Source of the DNA: Ignisphaera aggregans DSM 17230
GTDB lineage: Archaea; Thermoproteota; Thermoprotei_A; Sulfolobales; Ignisphaeraceae
Reading direction: 5' to 3'
Assembly: GCA_000145985.1 (NCBI GenBank)
Contig: CP002098.1
Span: 867,853-904,181, forward strand
Length of the DNA stretch: 36,329 nt
The notes under the pieces are model-generated. The model worked only from the letters and a program-made list of their open reading frames with translations. It was not told the origin of the DNA and did not search any database. The position numbers and the translations under genes were made by a program. Shown here piece after piece: positions 1 through 20,985 of the stretch (the stretch's first letter is position 1; every line of letters starts with the position of its first letter).

Positions 1-293
1 CCACTCAAAATCTTCTCATATTGACCAACCCTTGTAGCAACAGTCTTATTTATATAAGGCATGTATAGCCTTGCAATAGGATATCCATTTACATCGAGGA
101 TAACGACATCTATACCCTCTCTAGCTAGATACCTAATAGCCTTAGCCGATATTCCAACTCTTGAAGAAGCTATTATTATCTGATCAACATCAGGTGTAAT
201 AGCTATTTTCCTACCGTCTCTTGTAGCTATATATACACCTCCCCTACGACAATAAAGCCTAGAGCCAGGTTCAGCTATGAATATCGTCTTCAT
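1..293 (-). CDS. cas1: Cas1 CRISPR integrase, N-terminal part (cut by window edge)
   Basis: This is the N-terminal ~97 residues of Cas1, the metal-dependent integrase that, with Cas2, inserts new spacers at the leader end of a CRISPR array. The translation starts MKTIFIAEPGSRL and contains the typical Cas1 N-terminal beta-domain signatures: DQIIIASSRVGIS, AIRYLAREGIDVVILD and a later PYINKTVATRVGQYE. The catalytic C-terminal helical domain lies outside the window. The ATG at 291-293 overlaps the stop of the upstream csa1 gene in an ATGA arrangement, so the two genes are probably translationally coupled in one operon running away from the array. Family recognition is from sequence pattern; the truncation is only the window boundary. 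Confidence 0.93.
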   Translation of the reverse strand, partial: MKTIFIAEPGSRLYCRRGGVYIATRDGRKIAITPDVDQIIIASSRVGISAKAIRYLAREGIDVVILDVNGYPIARLYMPYINKTVATRVGQYEKILS

Positions 294-1183
294 ACCCCAC
301 AAACCTCTCTAAAGGGACACATCTTCAGACACTGGGAAGGCTTTCCAGGATCCTCCCCATACTCAATAATCCTAGCAACATCGTCTCTAGCCTCAATAAA
401 CCTCCTCCTAAGACTATCATCAATCCTTACAACCCTCCACTGAAATCTTACATCACTATTTATAGAGATACCTATAGTTATACCGATATCAACAGGATTA
501 CCACTCCAAGCCTCTATAGCCAATGCATAACCAGCTAAAGCAAGCTCCTTTCTCTCAAGGCTATTACCACCAAGAGAAAGCGTTATATCTATAGGCATAA
601 AACCGACCATGAGATCAGGTCTAACAAAATCAGATAGCCCAATAGCTCCACCAGGAATATAGGGTTCTACAGATATAGGCATCTGCTCCTCCTCAGCAAT
701 CATAGATAACGCCAAAGACTTTCTAAATACAGATTCAAATGCCTTCCAATATCCACGAAGATCTGCATAATCCTTTAAGCTACGTCTAAACATACCATAT
801 AGCCACTCGATATCCCTACCCCTATACCTAAACGGCAATAGAAAAACCTCATGAACAGCCCTACCAAGCCTAAGAACCTGTGAATCCACATATGTATGCA
901 AAACCCTCCTAAGATAAACATCCCTCTTCGTAGGACAAGGACTAGCAACCTCAGATATCGATGGCCTAGCACGAAACCTACTACCAACAACATCAAACCT
1001 CCAACCACGCACCTCAGCATACATACCATCACCAGCTGTAGCCCTAACATAATCCCAAACCCATCGAGGCAACATATCAAACCACCTAACAAAACATATC
1101 CACAAAAAGCTTTTCTCTCTAACCCTTAGACACAGCCCTATAACATAGAGCAAACCTCTATCCTTTCCCATTAGAACACCCAT
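290..1183 (-). CDS. csa1: Csa1, Cas4-like CRISPR adaptation nuclease (type I-A)
   Basis: A Cas4-family nuclease of the Csa1 subgroup, expected to process pre-spacers before Cas1/Cas2 integration. Visible family features are SEVASPCPTKRDVYLRR near residues 77-93, with Cys83, and a C-terminal cluster QCLKMCPFREVC giving Cys285, Cys289 and Cys295. Together these four cysteines match a [4Fe-4S] site. RecB-like nuclease elements are a His near 111, RPD at 188-190 and an ALAGYALAIE helix near 215-224. The 297-residue length is usual for Csa1. The start is uncertain: the first ~36 residues look unlike the family, and an ATG at 1073-1075 (MLPRWVW) is a reasonable alternative. It overlaps cas1 by four bases and is divergent from the array leader. 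Confidence 0.87.
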   Translation of the reverse strand: MGVLMGKDRGLLYVIGLCLRVREKSFLWICFVRWFDMLPRWVWDYVRATAGDGMYAEVRGWRFDVVGSRFRARPSISEVASPCPTKRDVYLRRVLHTYVDSQVLRLGRAVHEVFLLPFRYRGRDIEWLYGMFRRSLKDYADLRGYWKAFESVFRKSLALSMIAEEEQMPISVEPYIPGGAIGLSDFVRPDLMVGFMPIDITLSLGGNSLERKELALAGYALAIEAWSGNPVDIGITIGISINSDVRFQWRVVRIDDSLRRRFIEARDDVARIIEYGEDPGKPSQCLKMCPFREVCGV

Positions 1184-1349
1184 GTTATGGTTATTGTGTC
1201 TTCACAATTAGAATTGTTTCATTGTTTCTACTGTTTTTCATTAGAACATTATTGCTATCACTAATCAACGACTTTACGGATGTTCCAATAATGTATATAG
1301 GTGATAAAATTATATAAACTTATAAACAGATATATAAACATAATACATA
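1184..1349 (+). promoter_or_regulatory. CRISPR leader with TATA-box promoter
   Basis: A strongly AT-rich 166-bp stretch without an ORF separates csa1 from the first repeat. An archaeal TATA element (ATTATATAAAC, about 1309-1319) lies roughly 30-40 bp before the first repeat, so transcription would run rightward into the array. The repeat orientation agrees: read rightward, each repeat ends in GTAGAAAG, matching the 8-nt 5' crRNA handles seen in crenarchaea. The leader would also be the spacer integration site, making the leftmost spacers the newest. The same stretch must hold the csa1 promoter on the minus strand, which I could not pinpoint. Confidence 0.75.
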
Positions 1350-3028
1350 GAAACTCCCAAAAGGGAGTAGAAAGATCTACATCACATTATCAGAGCTTCC
1401 ATCCTATCTCTCAGAATCGAAACTCCCAAAAGGGAGTAGAAAGGTCACTATAATGATATTGAACAAAGACGAGTCTATAACATATTCGAAACTCCCAAAA
1501 GGGAGTAGAAAGTCTAGACATAGGATATTTAATGATGGAGATAGAGGAGATCAAGAAGAAACTCCCAAAAGGGAGTAGAAAGCGGAGTCTATTCTGTCGC
1601 AGACCTCCTTGTAGACACATTTGTTGCGAAACTCCCAAAAGGGAGTAGAAAGATCTACACCACCTCTTTTTCCTGAACATGATTCTATAATATAGCTTTC
1701 TTGAAACTCCCAAAAGGGAGTAGAAAGACTAGCACCATCTACGTCATTGGTTATCCGTTCCAGTTGCTACGAAACTCCCAAAAGGGAGTAGAAAGGCCCA
1801 GCCACCGCCGCCCATGGGTTAAAGCATGATAGATGAAACTCCCAAAAGGGAGTAGAAAGCAAGATGTTAGAAGAAAGTATGAGGCGATGAGAAGGGAAGC
1901 GCTTAAGAAACTCCCAAAAGGGAGTAGAAAGTTGCATAGTGGAGTATTATCCTTACAACATCTGTTGATGCTATTGGGTCCTCGAAACTCCCAAAAGGGA
2001 GTAGAAAGGTGTTTTCGCAGAGGAACATTAGGTGTGAAAGCAGTTTTATTAGGTATGTGAAACTCCCAAAAGGGAGTAGAAAGGTTAACATCTCTATACT
2101 CATTAACACATATCTTAACATTCTCAAGAAACTCCCAAAAGGGAGTAGAAAGATGTGCTCAGCTTCAGGTAGTGTCTGCTCAACACTTCCTGTGGAACGA
2201 AACTCCCAAAAGGGAGTAGAAAGATTAGAAATGCTACTCTTTTCCCTGTCTCCGAGTCCTCCCAACTCAGGAAACTCCCAAAAGGGAGTAGAAAGGTAGG
2301 CGGTGGCGGTGGCTGTGCTGGCTTTACATATGTTATAGTTGTATTTGTGAAACTCCCAAAAGGGAGTAGAAAGTCTATGTTAGCTTCTATGTCGGAGTAT
2401 ATAACAATTCCTAAAGAATTGAAACTCCCAAAAGGGAGTAGAAAGAGCCACGAATATATCCACGCAGCCAAGCTACACCAACTAGCCCTAAGAAACTCCC
2501 AAAAGGGAGTAGAAAGATTTGATATAGATGTAGATGCACCTGCATGGATATATCTATTGCCAGAAACTCCCAAAAGGGAGTAGAAAGAACGACAAACCAA
2601 ATCCGTCATAGTCGTCGAACCATCCGTACCATAGTGTGTAGAAACTCCCAAAAGGGAGTAGAAAGTATCAGATATAGACGCAATGGACTTGACAGAGCTA
2701 TCACTGAGAAGAAACTCCCAAAAGGGAGTAGAAAGATATAATATATATAGTCCAGAGACAGCAGAACACTACTCATCGGAAACTCCCAAAAGGGAGTAGA
2801 AAGATAGGAGAATCATGGTGTAACAACATTGTTAGATGCTCCTATGATACTGCGAAACTCCCAAAAGGGAGTAGAAAGCTAGACTCATACACCAAAAGAA
2901 TATACGCCTGCTCAACAGACTATGCACTAGAAACTCCCAAAAGGGAGTAGAAAGATGAATACATATGATACATATCCCCTTGTGCCATTCAAGAATCTTA
3001 TATGAAACTCCCAAAAGGGAGTAGAAAG
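1350..3028 (+). CRISPR. CRISPR array, 24 repeats and 23 spacers
   Basis: The 25-bp repeat begins GAAACTCCCAAAA and ends GGGAGTAGAAAG; its core CTCCC-AAAA-GGGAG is a perfect 5-bp hairpin. Repeat starts are 1350, 1419, 1488, 1558, 1628, 1703, 1771, 1835, 1907, 1984, 2059, 2128, 2199, 2271, 2349, 2421, 2492, 2563, 2641, 2711, 2779, 2854, 2930 and 3004. By eye every copy is identical, including the leader-distal one, which is unusual because terminal repeats normally decay. The 23 spacers range from 39 bp (1796-1834) to 53 bp (2296-2348 and 2588-2640), mostly 43-51 bp, and none repeats another. Adjacent csa1-cas1 point to type I-A. Several long ORFs across the array on both strands come only from repeat periodicity. 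Confidence 0.99.
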
Positions 3029-3324
3029 TGGCGATTCTAATCATCGCACTTCTCTGTCTTGGTTTAGAGGTTCAGAATTTAATATCTTTTATCTTCCACT
3101 CTTTTCTGATTGTTCAAGGAACTTTCCTCTCTACTAAGCAATCGGAGAAGGCCTCTGAGAACAGCTATGGCTCTTTCCACTCTACTAATGCAGAAAAGAT
3201 TTTTAGCTCCCAAAACTAGCAGTTTTTGGGTCAGTGGTTCAAGCTTTCTTCACAGCTCTTGCGGCCTCCGAGTGGCGGCTGCGGTGAGTGAAGATGAGCT
3301 GCAGTGTCTGCCGTGAGGGGGCCG
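3029..3324. other. Non-coding, G+C-richer stretch after the last regular repeat
   Basis: No convincing gene is seen. The first ~45 bp could be a 24th spacer that lost its closing repeat. Two 16-bp near-identical direct repeats, CTTTCCTCTCTACTAA (3122-3137) and CTTTCCACTCTACTAA (3173-3188), lie 51 bp apart. A hairpin CCCAAAACT-AGC-AGTTTTTGGG spans 3209-3230 with one bulged T and could end array transcription. From about 3240 the sequence is visibly richer in G+C than the rest of the window, continuing into the next two genes, which suggests DNA of different origin. Confidence 0.5.
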
Positions 3325-3779
3325 CTACTTCAGTATCCGCTCTATGAGCTGCGGTTTCTTTCTGACTTCTGTGGCCCAGTACGCGTAGTAAGCAACGTTG
3401 TCAGCCAGCAGAGCTAGCACCCTTTCGTGTCTCCTCGAAACTCTGTCCTCCGGGATTTTGCGAGGGTAGTTGATGTATGTATATAGCTTCGGATCGACTA
3501 TGAGCACGGCGGGTCTGAGCCTCTCTACGAGGTTGCTGTAGCTATCCAAGTTGTTGAACCACCTCACATACTCCAGGAACTCCTTCAGCTTGGAGAACCT
3601 CTCGGGGAATTTGCGTAGGTACAGAGCCCTCTCCAACCGGGGCAGATCAGCTACATGCTTCACCCATCTCTGCTCAGAAAGTTACGCCTCTTAACGACGT
3701 GCTCCCGAGCAGCCACAAAACCTATGTAACTGAAGCTCACACTAAAATCCACAGCAGCTATCAGATCGCTTAAAGCTGA
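3325..3779 (-). pseudogene. Unrecognised gene broken by a frameshift
   Basis: Reading leftward, one frame from 3779 encodes a helical segment (SDLIAAVDFSVSFSYIGF, then VAAREHVVKRRNFL) and stops at 3660-3662. A second frame opens around 3683 and continues as SEQRWVKHVADLPRLERAL to a stop at 3325. The two readings join naturally at NFL/SEQRW, so I infer one original protein of about 145 residues split by a one-base indel between 3662 and 3684. No ATG precedes the first segment; a strong Shine-Dalgarno-like GGGGTGATC lies at about 3778-3786, so the start codon may also be lost. If translated only from the GTG at 3661-3663, a 112-residue C-terminal product results. Codon and base composition are more G+C-rich than neighbours. 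I do not recognise the family. Confidence 0.5.
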
Positions 3780-3846
3780 TCACCCCGGAGACTGGGTTCG
3801 GGGGTTCCAGCCTTTTCTGATCGCTTCCTGTTTCGGCTTATGTACT

Positions 3847-3862
3847 AGGAATTTAAATTCCT
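3847..3862. promoter_or_regulatory. 16-bp perfect palindrome with TATA-like core
   Basis: AGGAATTTAAATTCCT is self-complementary. It lies between two minus-strand genes, about 80 bp upstream of the frameshifted gene, and its ATTTAAAT centre could serve as a TATA element with flanking half-sites as an operator. This role is inference from position and symmetry. Confidence 0.35.
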
Positions 3863-3887
3863 TGCGATTCTCCAACAAGGGAACTGG

Positions 3888-4179
3888 TTAAACGTGGAAC
3901 TCCTCAGAGATTATCCCGTACTCCCTGAGCTCGAGCCACGACTCCGCTATCTTCTTAGGATTGCTGAATATCTTGTCGAAGTTTATGTCCACATACGATG
4001 GATGCACTTCTCCGAATATCCACACCATCTGCACCATGCCCTTGGTCTTGATGTCTTTGACCTCCGTTTTAAGCAAGTGGAAGAATTGAAATGACTCTAC
4101 TACCCAGTTGCACTCTCCGGATAACATAAAGACTTGTATAGGCCGGCCGTATAGTGCCACGACAAAGGCTTTGGCGTAC
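3888..4179 (-). pseudogene. C-terminal fragment of an unknown gene cut at a CRISPR half-repeat
   Basis: About 97 residues of coding-like sequence (YAKAFVVALYGRPIQVF onward, ending YGIISEEFHV) run from the right edge to a stop at 3888. The reading frame stays open further upstream, but those extra residues come from the CRISPR-derived bases at 4180-4191 and the unrelated DNA beyond, so the true N-terminus is missing. The break is precise: recognisable coding ends at GTAC just before GAAACTCCCAAA. Composition is G+C-rich like the neighbouring broken gene, so both probably arrived together. The family is unknown to me. An ATG within the extension (4239-4241) could give a 117-residue fusion product, but there is no reason to think it is functional. 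Confidence 0.55.
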
Positions 4180-4191
4180 GAAACTCCCAAA
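4180..4191 (+). repeat. Half CRISPR repeat (first 12 bp)
   Basis: GAAACTCCCAAA is identical to the first 12 bases of the 25-bp CRISPR repeat and has the same orientation as the array. The match stops at the hairpin loop, where unrelated sequence (CGGTGATGC) begins. It forms the junction between the truncated G+C-rich gene on its left and the small membrane-protein cluster on its right. Confidence 0.8.
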
Positions 4192-4204
4192 CGGTGATGC
4201 ATTA

Positions 4205-4534
4205 ATGATGTGCACAGGTAAGGCTCTAACTCTATCGACAATATATTCCATTTTATTCTTTTTACTATGTATTTCTAACCTGCTCGAAGGGGAAATCGGG
4301 CTAGGTGTATTCTGGATATATGTTGGAATCGGTACAATTCCAGAGAAAAACATTTCCAGCAGAATGCTAACCGTTAAATACCTCGCCATAATTTTGCTCG
4401 GTGTATTGGGTTTGTTTTTCGAGATGAAAATATGGATGCACATAATAATGGTCATCGGATCACTCGTTGCTGCTATTGAACTCTACAGACATATAAAGAG
4501 GATATCGAGGAGGTTAAACAATGAACAGTTTTGA
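4205..4534 (+). CDS. Small unknown membrane protein, first of three overlapping genes
   Basis: About 109 residues starting at tandem ATGs (4205 and 4208). It has a hydrophobic segment near the N-terminus (LSTIYSILFFLLCISNLL), a second around LGVFWIYVGIGTI, and two more at YLAIILLGVLGLFF and IIMVIGSLVAAIEL. It ends in a basic tail (RHIKRISRRLNN). The frame remains open upstream to 4154, but that part crosses the half CRISPR repeat, so the N-terminus may itself be truncated or the gene may start freshly at 4205. It overlaps the next gene by four bases. Function is unrecognised. Confidence 0.55.
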   Translation: MMCTGKALTLSTIYSILFFLLCISNLLEGEIGLGVFWIYVGIGTIPEKNISSRMLTVKYLAIILLGVLGLFFEMKIWMHIIMVIGSLVAAIELYRHIKRISRRLNNEQF

Positions 4535-4680
4535 AACACTACAGCGTTGATGGTATAGTTGGATGTACAGTGATTTGCATAGGATCTGCAGGACTTGGAT
4601 GTATATTGTTTGTATGTCTAATACTGTTCTTGGTGCATGGACATCCCTATCTAGATGCTATGGGTACTGTCCAGCAATGA
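4531..4680 (+). CDS. 49-residue membrane peptide, TTG start coupled to upstream gene
   Basis: A TTG at 4531-4533 overlaps the upstream stop (TTGA), and a GGAGG lies about 18 bp before it. The predicted product begins (M)KHYSVDGIVGCTVICIGS and has a single long hydrophobic stretch from about residue 9 to 35 (AGLGCILFVCLILFLV) with four cysteines in or near it. It is too short for ordinary gene finding, but the frame carries a coherent membrane segment and overlaps genes on both sides. An ATG at 4521 closer to the GGAGG opens only a 9-residue frame. No family recognised. Confidence 0.45.
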   Translation: MKHYSVDGIVGCTVICIGSAGLGCILFVCLILFLVHGHPYLDAMGTVQQ

Positions 4681-4889
4681 ATATTTGTATAAGAGTATTG
4701 TGGGTAAATGTAGCGTACTTCTGCAACATTGCAGCTTGTTCCAGCAATAATGATCTCATAGAATGTTCTGCAAATTACTACACAAACCACTGCCAACTCA
4801 GGAAAATCCTGCTGAATTGGAGATCTTTTAGCCATGCCTTGAACCCCTTAATTTATTACCAAAGAAGACAACAGAAGTTGTCAACATAG
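4677..4889 (+). CDS. 70-residue Cys-rich unknown protein, ATGA-coupled
   Basis: Its ATG (4677-4679) overlaps the previous stop as ATGA, which supports translation as the third member of a coupled set. The product has a mildly hydrophobic N-terminus (MNICIRVLWVNVAYFC), then CNIAACSS, ECSANYY and NHCQLRK, giving five cysteines in the first ~40 residues, and a basic end (YYQRRQQKLST). It could be a small secreted or membrane-associated cysteine-rich peptide, but that is speculation. The frame is open further upstream to 4563, which I regard as accidental because it overlaps the preceding gene. Confidence 0.35.
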   Translation: MNICIRVLWVNVAYFCNIAACSSNNDLIECSANYYTNHCQLRKILLNWRSFSHALNPLIYYQRRQQKLST

Positions 4890-4947
4890 CAAAAAGAAAA
4901 ACCACTTCTAAAAATTTTAATTTTTTACCAAAGTCTACTACTATAGT

Positions 4948-5223
4948 ATGCGGATACATTGGAGCGTATTAGCAATGAACTATCCATCATATCTCTTAGC
5001 TTTTATAATCGGATTTGCGTTTTCCCTCATATCAGGAAAAATAATTGAAATTTTCAAAAATAGATTACTACTATCACTTTTAAACTTCGTAATAGCATCT
5101 ATATCAATTATAATGTTTAGGAAATTTGGAAAGGATATTAAAGCTGGTCTAATTATCGCAGCATCACTCTTATTTGGTATCTTATTGGGATATCTTATAC
5201 TTTCAGTTCTTTCGGGGATGTGA
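4948..5223 (+). CDS. 91-residue unknown membrane protein
   Basis: Three hydrophobic segments are visible: YLLAFIIGFAFSLISG, LLLSLLNFVIASISIIMF and LIIAASLLFGILLGYLIL, separated by short basic loops (KNR, RKFGKDIK). An AT-rich TATA-like element (AAAATTTTAATTTTTT, about 4911-4926) lies some 25-35 bp before the ATG at 4948, so the message may be nearly leaderless; a second ATG at 4975 is an alternative start. It lies 16 bp before the isolated CRISPR repeat. No family recognised; its size and topology resemble its small neighbours. Confidence 0.6.
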   Translation: MRIHWSVLAMNYPSYLLAFIIGFAFSLISGKIIEIFKNRLLLSLLNFVIASISIIMFRKFGKDIKAGLIIAASLLFGILLGYLILSVLSGM

Positions 5224-5238
5224 GAGGTGTGCTACACA

Positions 5239-5263
5239 GAAACTCCCAAAAGGGAGTAGAAAG
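5239..5263 (+). repeat. Isolated perfect CRISPR repeat
   Basis: All 25 bases match the array repeat (begins GAAACTCCCAAAA, ends GGGAGTAGAAAG), in the same orientation, more than 2.2 kb downstream of the array's last unit. No second copy flanks it at spacer distance. Its perfect conservation argues for recent separation from the array or recent insertion. Confidence 0.95.
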
Positions 5264-5421
5264 ATTGTATGGATGTTAACATCATTGTTTCTATTGATGA
5301 ATCAATTAGAAAAAACTAAAATAAAAGATGAAGCTTATTGACTACATGAAATAGTAATCTTTATATATCTGTATAGAATCAGTTAGAAAAGTCTGAAGGG
5401 TAGAGGATCTATATTGGAGTT

Positions 5422-5901
5422 GTGTATAAATACTATTTGGGGTGGAAAGAGGTGAGGGTACCACTGATTATATGGGTTGCAATAATAGTTTTCCTATTAG
5501 TGTTAACCCCGTTCATTAACTATAAGAAAACCTATCCAGCTAATAAGATATTCTTTATCTATCCACTAGAAGACATAATCCTACCTGTTATCATTGCCTT
5601 ATCGTTCTCCCTAATAGCGTTCTTGTATCTAGGAATTCTATCTACCAAGGAGATAGACAAGCATTCGGATAAAGTTGATATAAGACTTATAAAGGAATAT
5701 ATAACGGGGTGCCATCTAGCGTCAGCACTATCAATTATTGAAATACTTCTCCTAATACTCTTCTACATCTTCTCAGAATGGGACATCCTCGGAGCAGTTG
5801 CCATAGCACTACTATTCACAATAATCTTAATTGAGTTCCTCACAATATTGATGCTATGGAAGATTAGAATACAAACAATTGCAAACCAAATAGAAAAGTA
5901 G
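5422..5901 (+). CDS. Unknown four-helix membrane protein
   Basis: 159 residues from a GTG start. Four hydrophobic segments: about 14-31 (PLIIWVAIIVFLLVLTPF), 52-71 (ILPVIIALSFSLIAFLYLGI), 95-117 (CHLASALSIIEILLLILFYIF) and 122-146 (ILGAVAIALLFTIILIEFLTIL). A charged loop (STKEIDKHSDKVDIRLIKEY) sits between helices two and three. A TATA-like TTTATATATC lies at about 5351-5360. The start is uncertain; a better Shine-Dalgarno (GAGGTGA, about 5448-5454) sits inside the ORF. No family is recognised. It stands alone between the isolated repeat and vapBC. Confidence 0.65.
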   Translation: MYKYYLGWKEVRVPLIIWVAIIVFLLVLTPFINYKKTYPANKIFFIYPLEDIILPVIIALSFSLIAFLYLGILSTKEIDKHSDKVDIRLIKEYITGCHLASALSIIEILLLILFYIFSEWDILGAVAIALLFTIILIEFLTILMLWKIRIQTIANQIEK

Positions 5902-6009: not shown

Positions 6010-6432
6010 CTAACGAGATTCTTCGCTTTCTCGAGTCAGAATCTCTATCAGGGTCTGGGTATTGATAGATTCGGGAAATCTGAGAAGATCCTTGTCATCC
6101 GTAACAAGTTTAATTCCGAGTTGGCGGGCTGTATATATGTATGAAGCGTCATAAAATGTAAGGTTTTCATTTAGTGCTAGTTCAACTATTTTGGGTATGT
6201 CGATATGAGTTCTGACTATGTTAACATAGCTGAATATTTCATTGAAGAGCTCTACTATAGCTCTCAGATTCGAGATTCTGCCCCTCTTAAACTCCTTTAG
6301 CAATGTATTGCCGACTTCATATATAGTTAAATCTAGTACTGAGAATCTATGGGCATAGTCTATAAACCTCTCCCTTAATTCTAGTAGCAAGGGGTATATA
6401 GCCGAGGCATCGAGTAGATATTCTGTATACAT
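6010..6432 (-). CDS. vapC: VapC-type PIN-domain toxin
   Basis: A 140-residue PIN-domain ribonuclease. The acidic active-site residues are in place: Asp8 (YLLDAS), Glu39 (LTIYEVGN), Asp95 (FYDASYIYTA) and Asp112/Asp113 (VTDDKDL). Length and order match VapC toxins, which cleave RNA with bound Mg2+. It is six bases downstream of a VapB-like gene on the same strand, the usual antitoxin-toxin order. Type II toxin-antitoxin pairs are common in thermophilic crenarchaea and are often found near mobile or unstable DNA, which fits the neighbouring CRISPR-bounded region. Confidence 0.88.
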   Translation of the reverse strand: MYTEYLLDASAIYPLLLELRERFIDYAHRFSVLDLTIYEVGNTLLKEFKRGRISNLRAIVELFNEIFSYVNIVRTHIDIPKIVELALNENLTFYDASYIYTARQLGIKLVTDDKDLLRFPESINTQTLIEILTRESEESR

Positions 6433-6438
6433 ATATGC

Positions 6439-6663
6439 CTACCTCTCCAACCTAGTCTCCCTCACAGCTTCAACCCACTCCTCAGCAGTCAGACCAATAC
6501 TCTTCAGCCCCTCATCGAGAAGTGCTTTAAACCGCTGCTTCCTAACTCTACGAATCTCTGCCTCAAGTGCTCTCTCAACCACAGACTTCACATCTATCCC
6601 AAGCCTCTCAGCCTCCTCCTTAAGCTCACGCCTAATCCTCACAGATAGAACCTCCGTAGACAT
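6439..6663 (-). CDS. vapB: VapB-type antitoxin
   Basis: 74 residues with a ribbon-helix-helix-like N-terminus (MSTEVLSVRIRRELKEEAER) followed by LGIDVKSVVERALEAEI and a charged tail, as in archaeal VapB antitoxins. The RHH part would bind its own operator and the tail would wrap the toxin. The ATG at 6661-6663 is preceded by GGTGAG (6669-6674) at Shine-Dalgarno distance. It is the upstream member of the vapBC pair. Confidence 0.85.
   Translation of the reverse strand: MSTEVLSVRIRRELKEEAERLGIDVKSVVERALEAEIRRVRKQRFKALLDEGLKSIGLTAEEWVEAVRETRLER

Positions 6664-20745: not shown

Positions 20746-20985
<240 letters not shown>

What the first reader, a model, noticed from the sequence alone, without database searches (positions are those of the whole stretch)
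3029..4191. Foreign-looking, G+C-rich segment spliced into the distal end of a CRISPR array and bounded by repeats
The last regular repeat (ends 3028) and a 12-bp half repeat in the same orientation (4180-4191) enclose a G+C-richer block with one frameshifted gene and one gene whose coding stops exactly at the half repeat. The simplest reading is recombination or insertion between CRISPR repeats: the array once extended further and incoming DNA replaced part of it, breaking a repeat at its hairpin loop. Arrays acting as a landing site for DNA are not a usual view of CRISPR. The identical terminal repeat also fits a recently cut array.
Basis: partly seen in the sequence, partly recalled or inferred. 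Interest (0 to 1): 0.8.

Follow-up and report, generated by a model that had tools for sequence, protein, structure and literature searches.

The report
Foreign DNA lodged between CRISPR repeats
At the old end of this archaeon's CRISPR immune-memory array, kilobase-long pieces of decayed accessory DNA sit between CRISPR repeats where 47-base spacers should be, and a second array in the same genome shows the same thing, so CRISPR repeats appear to have repeatedly served as joining points for incoming DNA.

Summary
In the whole 1.88-Mb genome the 12-mer of the half repeat occurs 81 times, only in the three arrays or their leader-distal flanks. The distal end therefore reads: repeat (3004-3028) - 1151 bp - half repeat (4180-4191) - 1047 bp - repeat (5239-5263), where spacers are 39-53 bp. 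Array 3 of the same genome has the same architecture (repeat - 986 bp - decayed repeat - 1357 bp - decayed repeat). Its first block is homologous to window 4586-5264, and homology ends at the isolated repeat. Segment 3029-4179 is thus an extra insert between the last regular repeat and an older repeat. It carries a frameshifted, patchily distributed gene plus a 65-nt structured RNA (28 copies, strong covariation, no Rfam match). Homologous recombination at repeats is the likeliest route: a spindle-virus-like contig carries this exact repeat, and S. solfataricus locus F holds a published 899-bp plasmid fragment between two repeats. The insertions are well supported; the crossover mechanism is inferred. 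That the second gene is truncated at the half repeat could not be shown. The compact RNase H-like gene plus RNA unit may be the more novel thing here.

The parts
290..1183 (-). csa1 (cas4-family) adaptation gene; marks the leader side of the array
   Evidence: Pfam PF06023 Csa1, E 2e-61
1161..1349 (+). array leader
   Evidence: 88.7% identical to the leader of array 3 and 85.5% to that of array 2
1350..3028 (+). regular CRISPR array: 24 identical 25-nt repeats, 23 spacers of 39-53 nt
3004..3028 (+). last regular (complete) repeat = left border of the insert
3029..4179 (.). insert W1: 1151 bp, G+C 0.487, absent from the distal end of array 3
3263..3323 (-). decayed copy of the 65-nt structured RNA (model R1) downstream of gene 1; inner stem broken
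   Evidence: 59.1 bits, E 1.4e-10
3325..3790 (-). gene 1: frameshifted relative of a ~150-aa RNase H-fold protein
   Evidence: two frames matched, residues 2-31 and 26-145; intact relatives L019-L021; fold
3888..4181 (-). gene 2: open frame without relatives, possibly truncated (not shown)
4180..4191 (+). half repeat (first 12 nt; 14/15 if extended to 4194)
4192..5238 (.). block W2: decayed fragment of a Cys-rich secreted-peptide (bacteriocin-like) locus with small membrane-protein genes; homologous to array 3 block L060 5266-6251
4801..4904 (-). piece of W2 inverted relative to array 3 (L060 5885-5989, 80% identical)
4991..5238 (+). 3' part of a small membrane-protein gene, 80% identical to L060 5998-6251 (the 80% match runs on to 5264)
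5239..5263 (+). isolated complete perfect repeat; homology to array 3 ends here

Best explanation
The leader-distal end of this array is a stack of kilobase-size fragments of accessory DNA, each lodged between CRISPR repeats. SHOWN: the repeats, the half repeat and the isolated perfect repeat; W2 is homologous to a block at the distal end of array 3, and that homology ends at the isolated repeat; array 3 has no W1; W1 has no flanking direct repeat other than the CRISPR repeat and no terminal inverted repeats. INFERRED: block W2 entered an ancestral array, or was copied between arrays, with its repeat. Later W1 entered between the last regular repeat and the older repeat whose remnant is 4180-4191. 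The most likely route is homologous recombination at the 25-bp repeats, with a virus or plasmid carrying the host repeat (stand-alone repeat or mini-array) or with another array that already held the block. Repeats and insert then decayed because nothing there is under selection once it lies beyond the last transcribed spacers.
For: Perfect isolated repeat 2211 bp beyond the array. The 12-mer GAAACTCCCAAA has 81 genome hits, all in arrays or their distal flanks; outside the arrays only 856481, 872032, 873091 and 1247632. Array 3 has decayed repeats at +987 and +2368 bp; the second is not chance (3/10000). W2 and array 3's block are 80% identical over 4991-5264, ending with the repeat. A third copy of that locus, away from any array, has only GAAACT there. 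Six genus arrays end normally, with a decayed repeat 44-49 bp out. The only direct repeat bracketing W1 is the CRISPR repeat, 16/18. A spindle-virus-like IMG/VR contig carries the exact repeat twice with one 44-nt spacer, and its last viral frame runs into the repeat. Literature: stand-alone host-like repeats in archaeal viruses and conjugative plasmids (PMC6858448); repeat-repeat recombination in Sulfolobus (PMC3025118); 899-bp pNOB8-like fragment between two repeats of S. solfataricus locus F (PMC4390879).
Against: No empty-site relative or read data was found, so insertion versus replacement of spacers is not separated. W1's right border is a partial repeat, whereas clean homologous recombination should leave a complete one. 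No donor molecule carrying W1 or W2 next to a repeat was found. The viral contig could itself be a virus joined to a host array rather than a virus-borne mini-array. Gene 2 and the first ~230 bp of W1 have no relatives, so their foreign origin rests on composition alone.
Confidence: 0.62

Rival explanations
1. Transposition or illegitimate insertion of mobile DNA into the last spacer intervals, with the repeats mere bystanders that decayed afterwards.
For: Gene 1 plus its RNA looks like a small mobile unit with sharp ends. W2 contains an inversion, so the zone was rearranged.
Against: The unit (3263-~3790) ends well inside W1 (3029-4179). No inverted termini or target-site duplication bracket W1. 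The homology of W2 and array 3 ends at the repeat, not at an arbitrary point. Mobile elements are rarely seen in crenarchaeal arrays (PMC4390879).
Confidence: 0.2
2. Oversized 'spacers': Cas1-Cas2-Cas4 integrated kb-long DNA at the leader, making complete repeats on both sides, and later spacers pushed the blocks to the distal end.
For: The blocks sit between repeats in register, and the left border of both W1 and array 3's block is the exact end of a complete repeat.
Against: All blocks are consecutive at the distal end and none lies among the 23, 21 and 32 regular spacers. Spacer length is tightly held. A ruler mechanism for spacer size has been proposed for adaptation (PMC4390879).
Confidence: 0.12
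3. Chance: the 12-bp half repeat is a coincidence and the array simply ends at 3028.
For: The match is only 12 bp and lies in an open frame.
Against: 26/20000 in simulation; zero occurrences of the 12-mer elsewhere in 1.88 Mb; a perfect full repeat lies 1 kb further on; the position matches array 3.
Confidence: 0.02

Closest known systems
899-bp pNOB8-like plasmid fragment between two repeats of CRISPR locus F, Sulfolobus solfataricus (PMC4390879, section 4.5)
   Same: ~1 kb of accessory DNA between two repeats of a crenarchaeal array that is otherwise regular
   Different: Here there are two consecutive blocks, one shared by a second array of the same genome; the sources are a bacteriocin-like locus and an RNase H-like/RNA unit rather than a recognised plasmid; the repeats are partly decayed
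Virus-borne mini-CRISPR arrays and stand-alone repeats (PMC6858448); proposed integration by repeat-repeat recombination (PMC8616872)
   Same: A viral contig carries the host repeat exactly, the kind of molecule that could recombine with the array
   Different: In the window the foreign DNA is in the chromosome and decayed; no virus carrying W1 or W2 was found
Repeat-repeat recombination producing array deletions in Sulfolobus (PMC3025118)
   Same: Same substrate (direct repeats) and clean repeat borders
   Different: There spacers were lost; here kb-size DNA was gained

Membership tests
Foreign fragment between CRISPR repeats (S. solfataricus locus F type) | complete repeat directly on the left of the insert | tested here: met
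   3004-3028 perfect
Foreign fragment between CRISPR repeats (S. solfataricus locus F type) | repeat directly on the right of the insert, same orientation | tested here: inconclusive
   W1: only 12 (14/15) nt of a repeat at 4180; W1+W2 together end at a perfect repeat at 5239
Foreign fragment between CRISPR repeats (S. solfataricus locus F type) | insert derived from a mobile element | tested here: inconclusive
   gene 1 + RNA are patchy, occur as solo and broken copies, and 10 of 18 members match a viral protein family weakly; gene 2 has no relatives
Insertion sequence / transposon | terminal inverted repeats and target-site duplication at 3029/4179 | tested here: not met
Insertion sequence / transposon | known transposase gene | tested here: not met
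   no Pfam family for genes 1 and 2; gene 1 family also unmatched in NCBIfam
IS200/605 TnpB with omega RNA | ~350-400-aa TnpB and/or HUH TnpA | tested here: not met
   gene-1 family is ~150 aa with no TnpB or TnpA Pfam match
IS110 / bridge RNA | DEDD RuvC domain plus C-terminal serine transposase domain | tested here: not met
   protein is one RNase H-fold domain of ~150 aa
Virus-borne mini-CRISPR array (contig L122) | repeats identical to host arrays on a viral contig without cas genes | tested here: met
   2 exact repeats, one 44-nt spacer, viral genes, no cas genes or leader seen; the contig end lies in the array, so virus-borne versus integrated is open
Integrase-mediated provirus/plasmid | integrase gene and att site, usually at a tRNA | tested here: not met
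   no integrase found among the ORFs of 3029-5263, no tRNA there
Oversized Cas1-Cas2 spacer | complete repeats at both ends and integration at the leader end | not testable with these tools
   borders partly fit; needs biochemistry

The most novel reading that the evidence does not exclude
The G+C-rich core of the insert is a dead copy of an undescribed, very small mobile protein-RNA unit (~0.53 kb): a single RNase H-fold domain followed at once by a 65-nt structured RNA. The two act together to move, perhaps with the RNA choosing the site, and such units and repeat-carrying viruses use CRISPR array tails as a refuge.
Probability: 0.25. Interest if true: 0.8.

Novelty: new variant of a known kind. 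Interest (0 to 1): 0.56.

Why it matters
Crenarchaeal arrays are described as nearly free of inserted DNA, with one 899-bp exception. Here two arrays of one genome carry serial repeat-bounded inserts, and a virus-like contig carries the same repeat. If general, CRISPR arrays are not only a memory but recombination substrates through which repeat-carrying elements can enter the chromosome; array tails would then hold fossils of such elements that a spacer-only survey misses. The RNase H-fold gene with a covarying RNA directly downstream is a separate lead: a possible new class of small protein-RNA element.

Tried and rejected
1) Chance half repeat: rejected. 2) W1 as an ordinary IS: no transposase, inverted repeats or target duplication. 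3) W1 as a recent copy from elsewhere in the genome: no second copy by DNA search, no similarity to the other array tails or the tRNA-side locus. 4) Spacers targeting the inserts: only 13-17-nt chance-level matches, none to W1 or W2. 5) Missing N-terminus of gene 2: not found; weak hits judged chance (one in a 344-aa frame that does not realign, two in frames full of stops). 6) Register argument (insert length a whole number of repeat units): 16.4, 14.7, 14.2 and 19.4 units, no signal. 7) Viral relatives of gene 1, gene 2 or the membrane proteins in IMG/VR, of genes 1 and 2 in phage records, and of gene 1 in plasmids: none, although 10 of 18 family members match PHROG 31239 weakly. 8) TnpB, IS110 and TIGR-Tas as homes for gene 1: size, domains and RNA do not fit. 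9) Scattered repeat-like sites in genus member G007 (L094 5333, 6868, 8951, 9154) lie on the leader side; not pursued.

Full report
OBSERVATION. The array has 24 identical 25-nt repeats at 1350-3028. The Cas4-family gene csa1 lies at 290-1183 and a leader shared with the genome's other arrays at about 1161-1349, so 3028 is the leader-distal end. The half repeat at 4180-4191 is real. The distal end is therefore: repeat, 1151 bp (W1), half repeat, 1047 bp (W2), repeat.

NOT CHANCE. A same-strand match of 12 or more bases to any part of the repeat arose in 26 of 20000 simulated 2.2-kb intervals. In the whole genome GAAACTCCCAAA occurs 81 times. All but four hits are array repeats, and the four are the decayed terminal repeat of array 2 (856481), the half repeat (872032), the isolated repeat (873091) and a site in the tail of array 3 (1247632); the reversed control pattern has none.

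THE OTHER ARRAYS. Array 2 (856541-858083, minus) ends normally: a decayed repeat lies 49 bp after the last perfect one. Arrays of other genus members that have a recognisable terminal repeat look the same (44-49 bp; six arrays in all). Array 3 (1242963-1245264) does not: its next repeats are at +987 bp (GAAACTTCCAAAAGG-AGTAGAAAG) and +2368 bp (13-bp exact prefix; 3 of 10000 simulations). Its first block (L060 5266-6251) is homologous to W2: window 4991-5264 matches L060 5998-6276 at 80% and the match ends with the repeat; 4586-4706 matches 5435-5554 at 64%; 4801-4904 matches inverted at 80%. The half repeat at 4180 thus stands where array 3 has its last regular repeat, and W1 is an extra piece that array 3 lacks (no similarity).

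WHAT W2 IS. A third copy of the W2 locus lies elsewhere in the genome without an array (L086 4977-6796, minus): a 279-aa precursor with a Cys-rich C-terminus followed by small membrane-protein genes. I read it as bacteriocin-like from its architecture; no Pfam model matches. Array 3's block begins inside that precursor gene 28 bp after its repeat and stays homologous (66%) up to the start of the next repeat, where the free copy has only GAAACT. So fragments of this locus were joined to repeats on both sides. A CAAX-protease gene (PF02517) lies in array 3's second block.

WHAT W1 IS. Gene 1 (minus, ~3790-3325) is split between two frames and belongs to a ~150-aa family found in 19 of 229 genomes of the class and 8 of a 398-genome phylum sample, i.e. 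patchy. Model m776b16d83b91 (pLDDT 94) has an RNase H fold; best solved match archaeal RNase HII, E 5e-4, TM 0.53, then RuvC and integrase cores at weak scores. Invariant D93, E108 and D124 and near-invariant D7 fit a nuclease site; activity is inferred. Directly after the stop codon comes a 65-nt RNA: 28 aligned copies, 14 of 18 pairs with changes on both sides, covariation 0.444 against 0.133 in shuffles (0/500), no such signal when partners are slid (the alignment was fitted to the structure, so this leans towards it, but the seed alignment of five already showed double changes in three pairs). There was no Rfam match. Pairwise DNA comparison of 18 loci bounds the unit, in most pairs, from about 20 bp before the gene to the RNA's end, and RNA copies also occur alone or with broken genes. 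The window copy is dead: frameshifted, RNA inner stem broken. Gene 2 has no credible relatives and its frame is open through the half repeat, so its truncation is unproven.

MECHANISM. W1 is bracketed only by the CRISPR repeat (16/18 match 3001-3018 with 4177-4194); no transposon ends were found. The simplest route that puts kb-size DNA between repeats, more than once and in two arrays, is homologous recombination at repeats. Recombination between array repeats is documented in Sulfolobus (PMC3025118). Archaeal viruses and conjugative plasmids carry host-like stand-alone repeats (PMC6858448), and integration by that route has been proposed (PMC8616872). In IMG/VR I found one contig with this exact repeat: L122, 7449 bp, two repeats with a 44-nt spacer, proteins matching viral families, and a viral reading frame that runs into the repeat; that it resembles spindle-shaped viruses is my own reading of its proteins, not a test. 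Whether it is a virus with a mini-array or a virus joined to a host array cannot be told, since the contig ends in the array. An alternative donor is another array already carrying the block. Oversized spacers and plain transposition are possible but fit less well (see rivals).

KNOWN OR NEW. A direct precedent is the 899-bp pNOB8-like fragment between two repeats of S. solfataricus locus F; the same review stresses how rare inserted DNA is in crenarchaeal arrays (PMC4390879). The present case adds serial inserts, a shared block in two arrays of one genome, and a virus-like contig with the same repeat. I rate it a new variant of a known kind. The insertion reading is strong; the crossover mechanism is inferred. 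No reads and no empty site were available.

Noticed in passing
window 3263-3790 (minus); intact copies L019, L020, L021 and others: Compact unit of an RNase H-fold ~150-aa gene plus a 65-nt structured RNA with strong covariation; not in Pfam, NCBIfam or Rfam; sharp ends in most pairs, solo RNA copies, a tandem RNA pair (L117 1501-1632). Possibly a new small mobile protein-RNA element.
   Followed up: partly
L086 4977-6796 (genome 1868976-1870795): Cys-rich 279-aa secreted-peptide precursor followed by three small membrane-protein genes, bacteriocin/immunity-like; a copy of the structured RNA lies nearby at L086 2992-3057, and a tRNA-Arg gene at L086 9538-9615.
   Followed up: partly
L122 (IMGVR_UViG_3300020567_000043) 1-95: Spindle-virus-like contig carrying two exact copies of the host CRISPR repeat with one 44-nt spacer and no leader; the adjoining viral frame runs straight into the repeat.
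   Followed up: partly
L060 6276-7658: Second repeat-bounded block at array 3 with a CAAX-protease (PF02517) gene, ending in a decayed repeat.
   Followed up: partly
window 4801-4904: Short inversion inside W2 relative to both other genomic copies, splitting a small membrane-protein gene.
   Followed up: partly
L094 (G007:C8) 5333, 6868, 8951, 9154: Scattered repeat-like sites (1-5 edits) upstream of an array's presumed leader side in a genus member, all in the array's orientation.
   Followed up: no
window 6010-6663 (minus): PIN-domain toxin with a CcdA-like antitoxin gene just beyond the array tail.
   Followed up: no
window 20892-20985 (minus): ARAGORN reports a tRNA-like gene with an odd four-base anticodon (ccta); unchecked, may be an intron-bearing or false call.
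   Followed up: no
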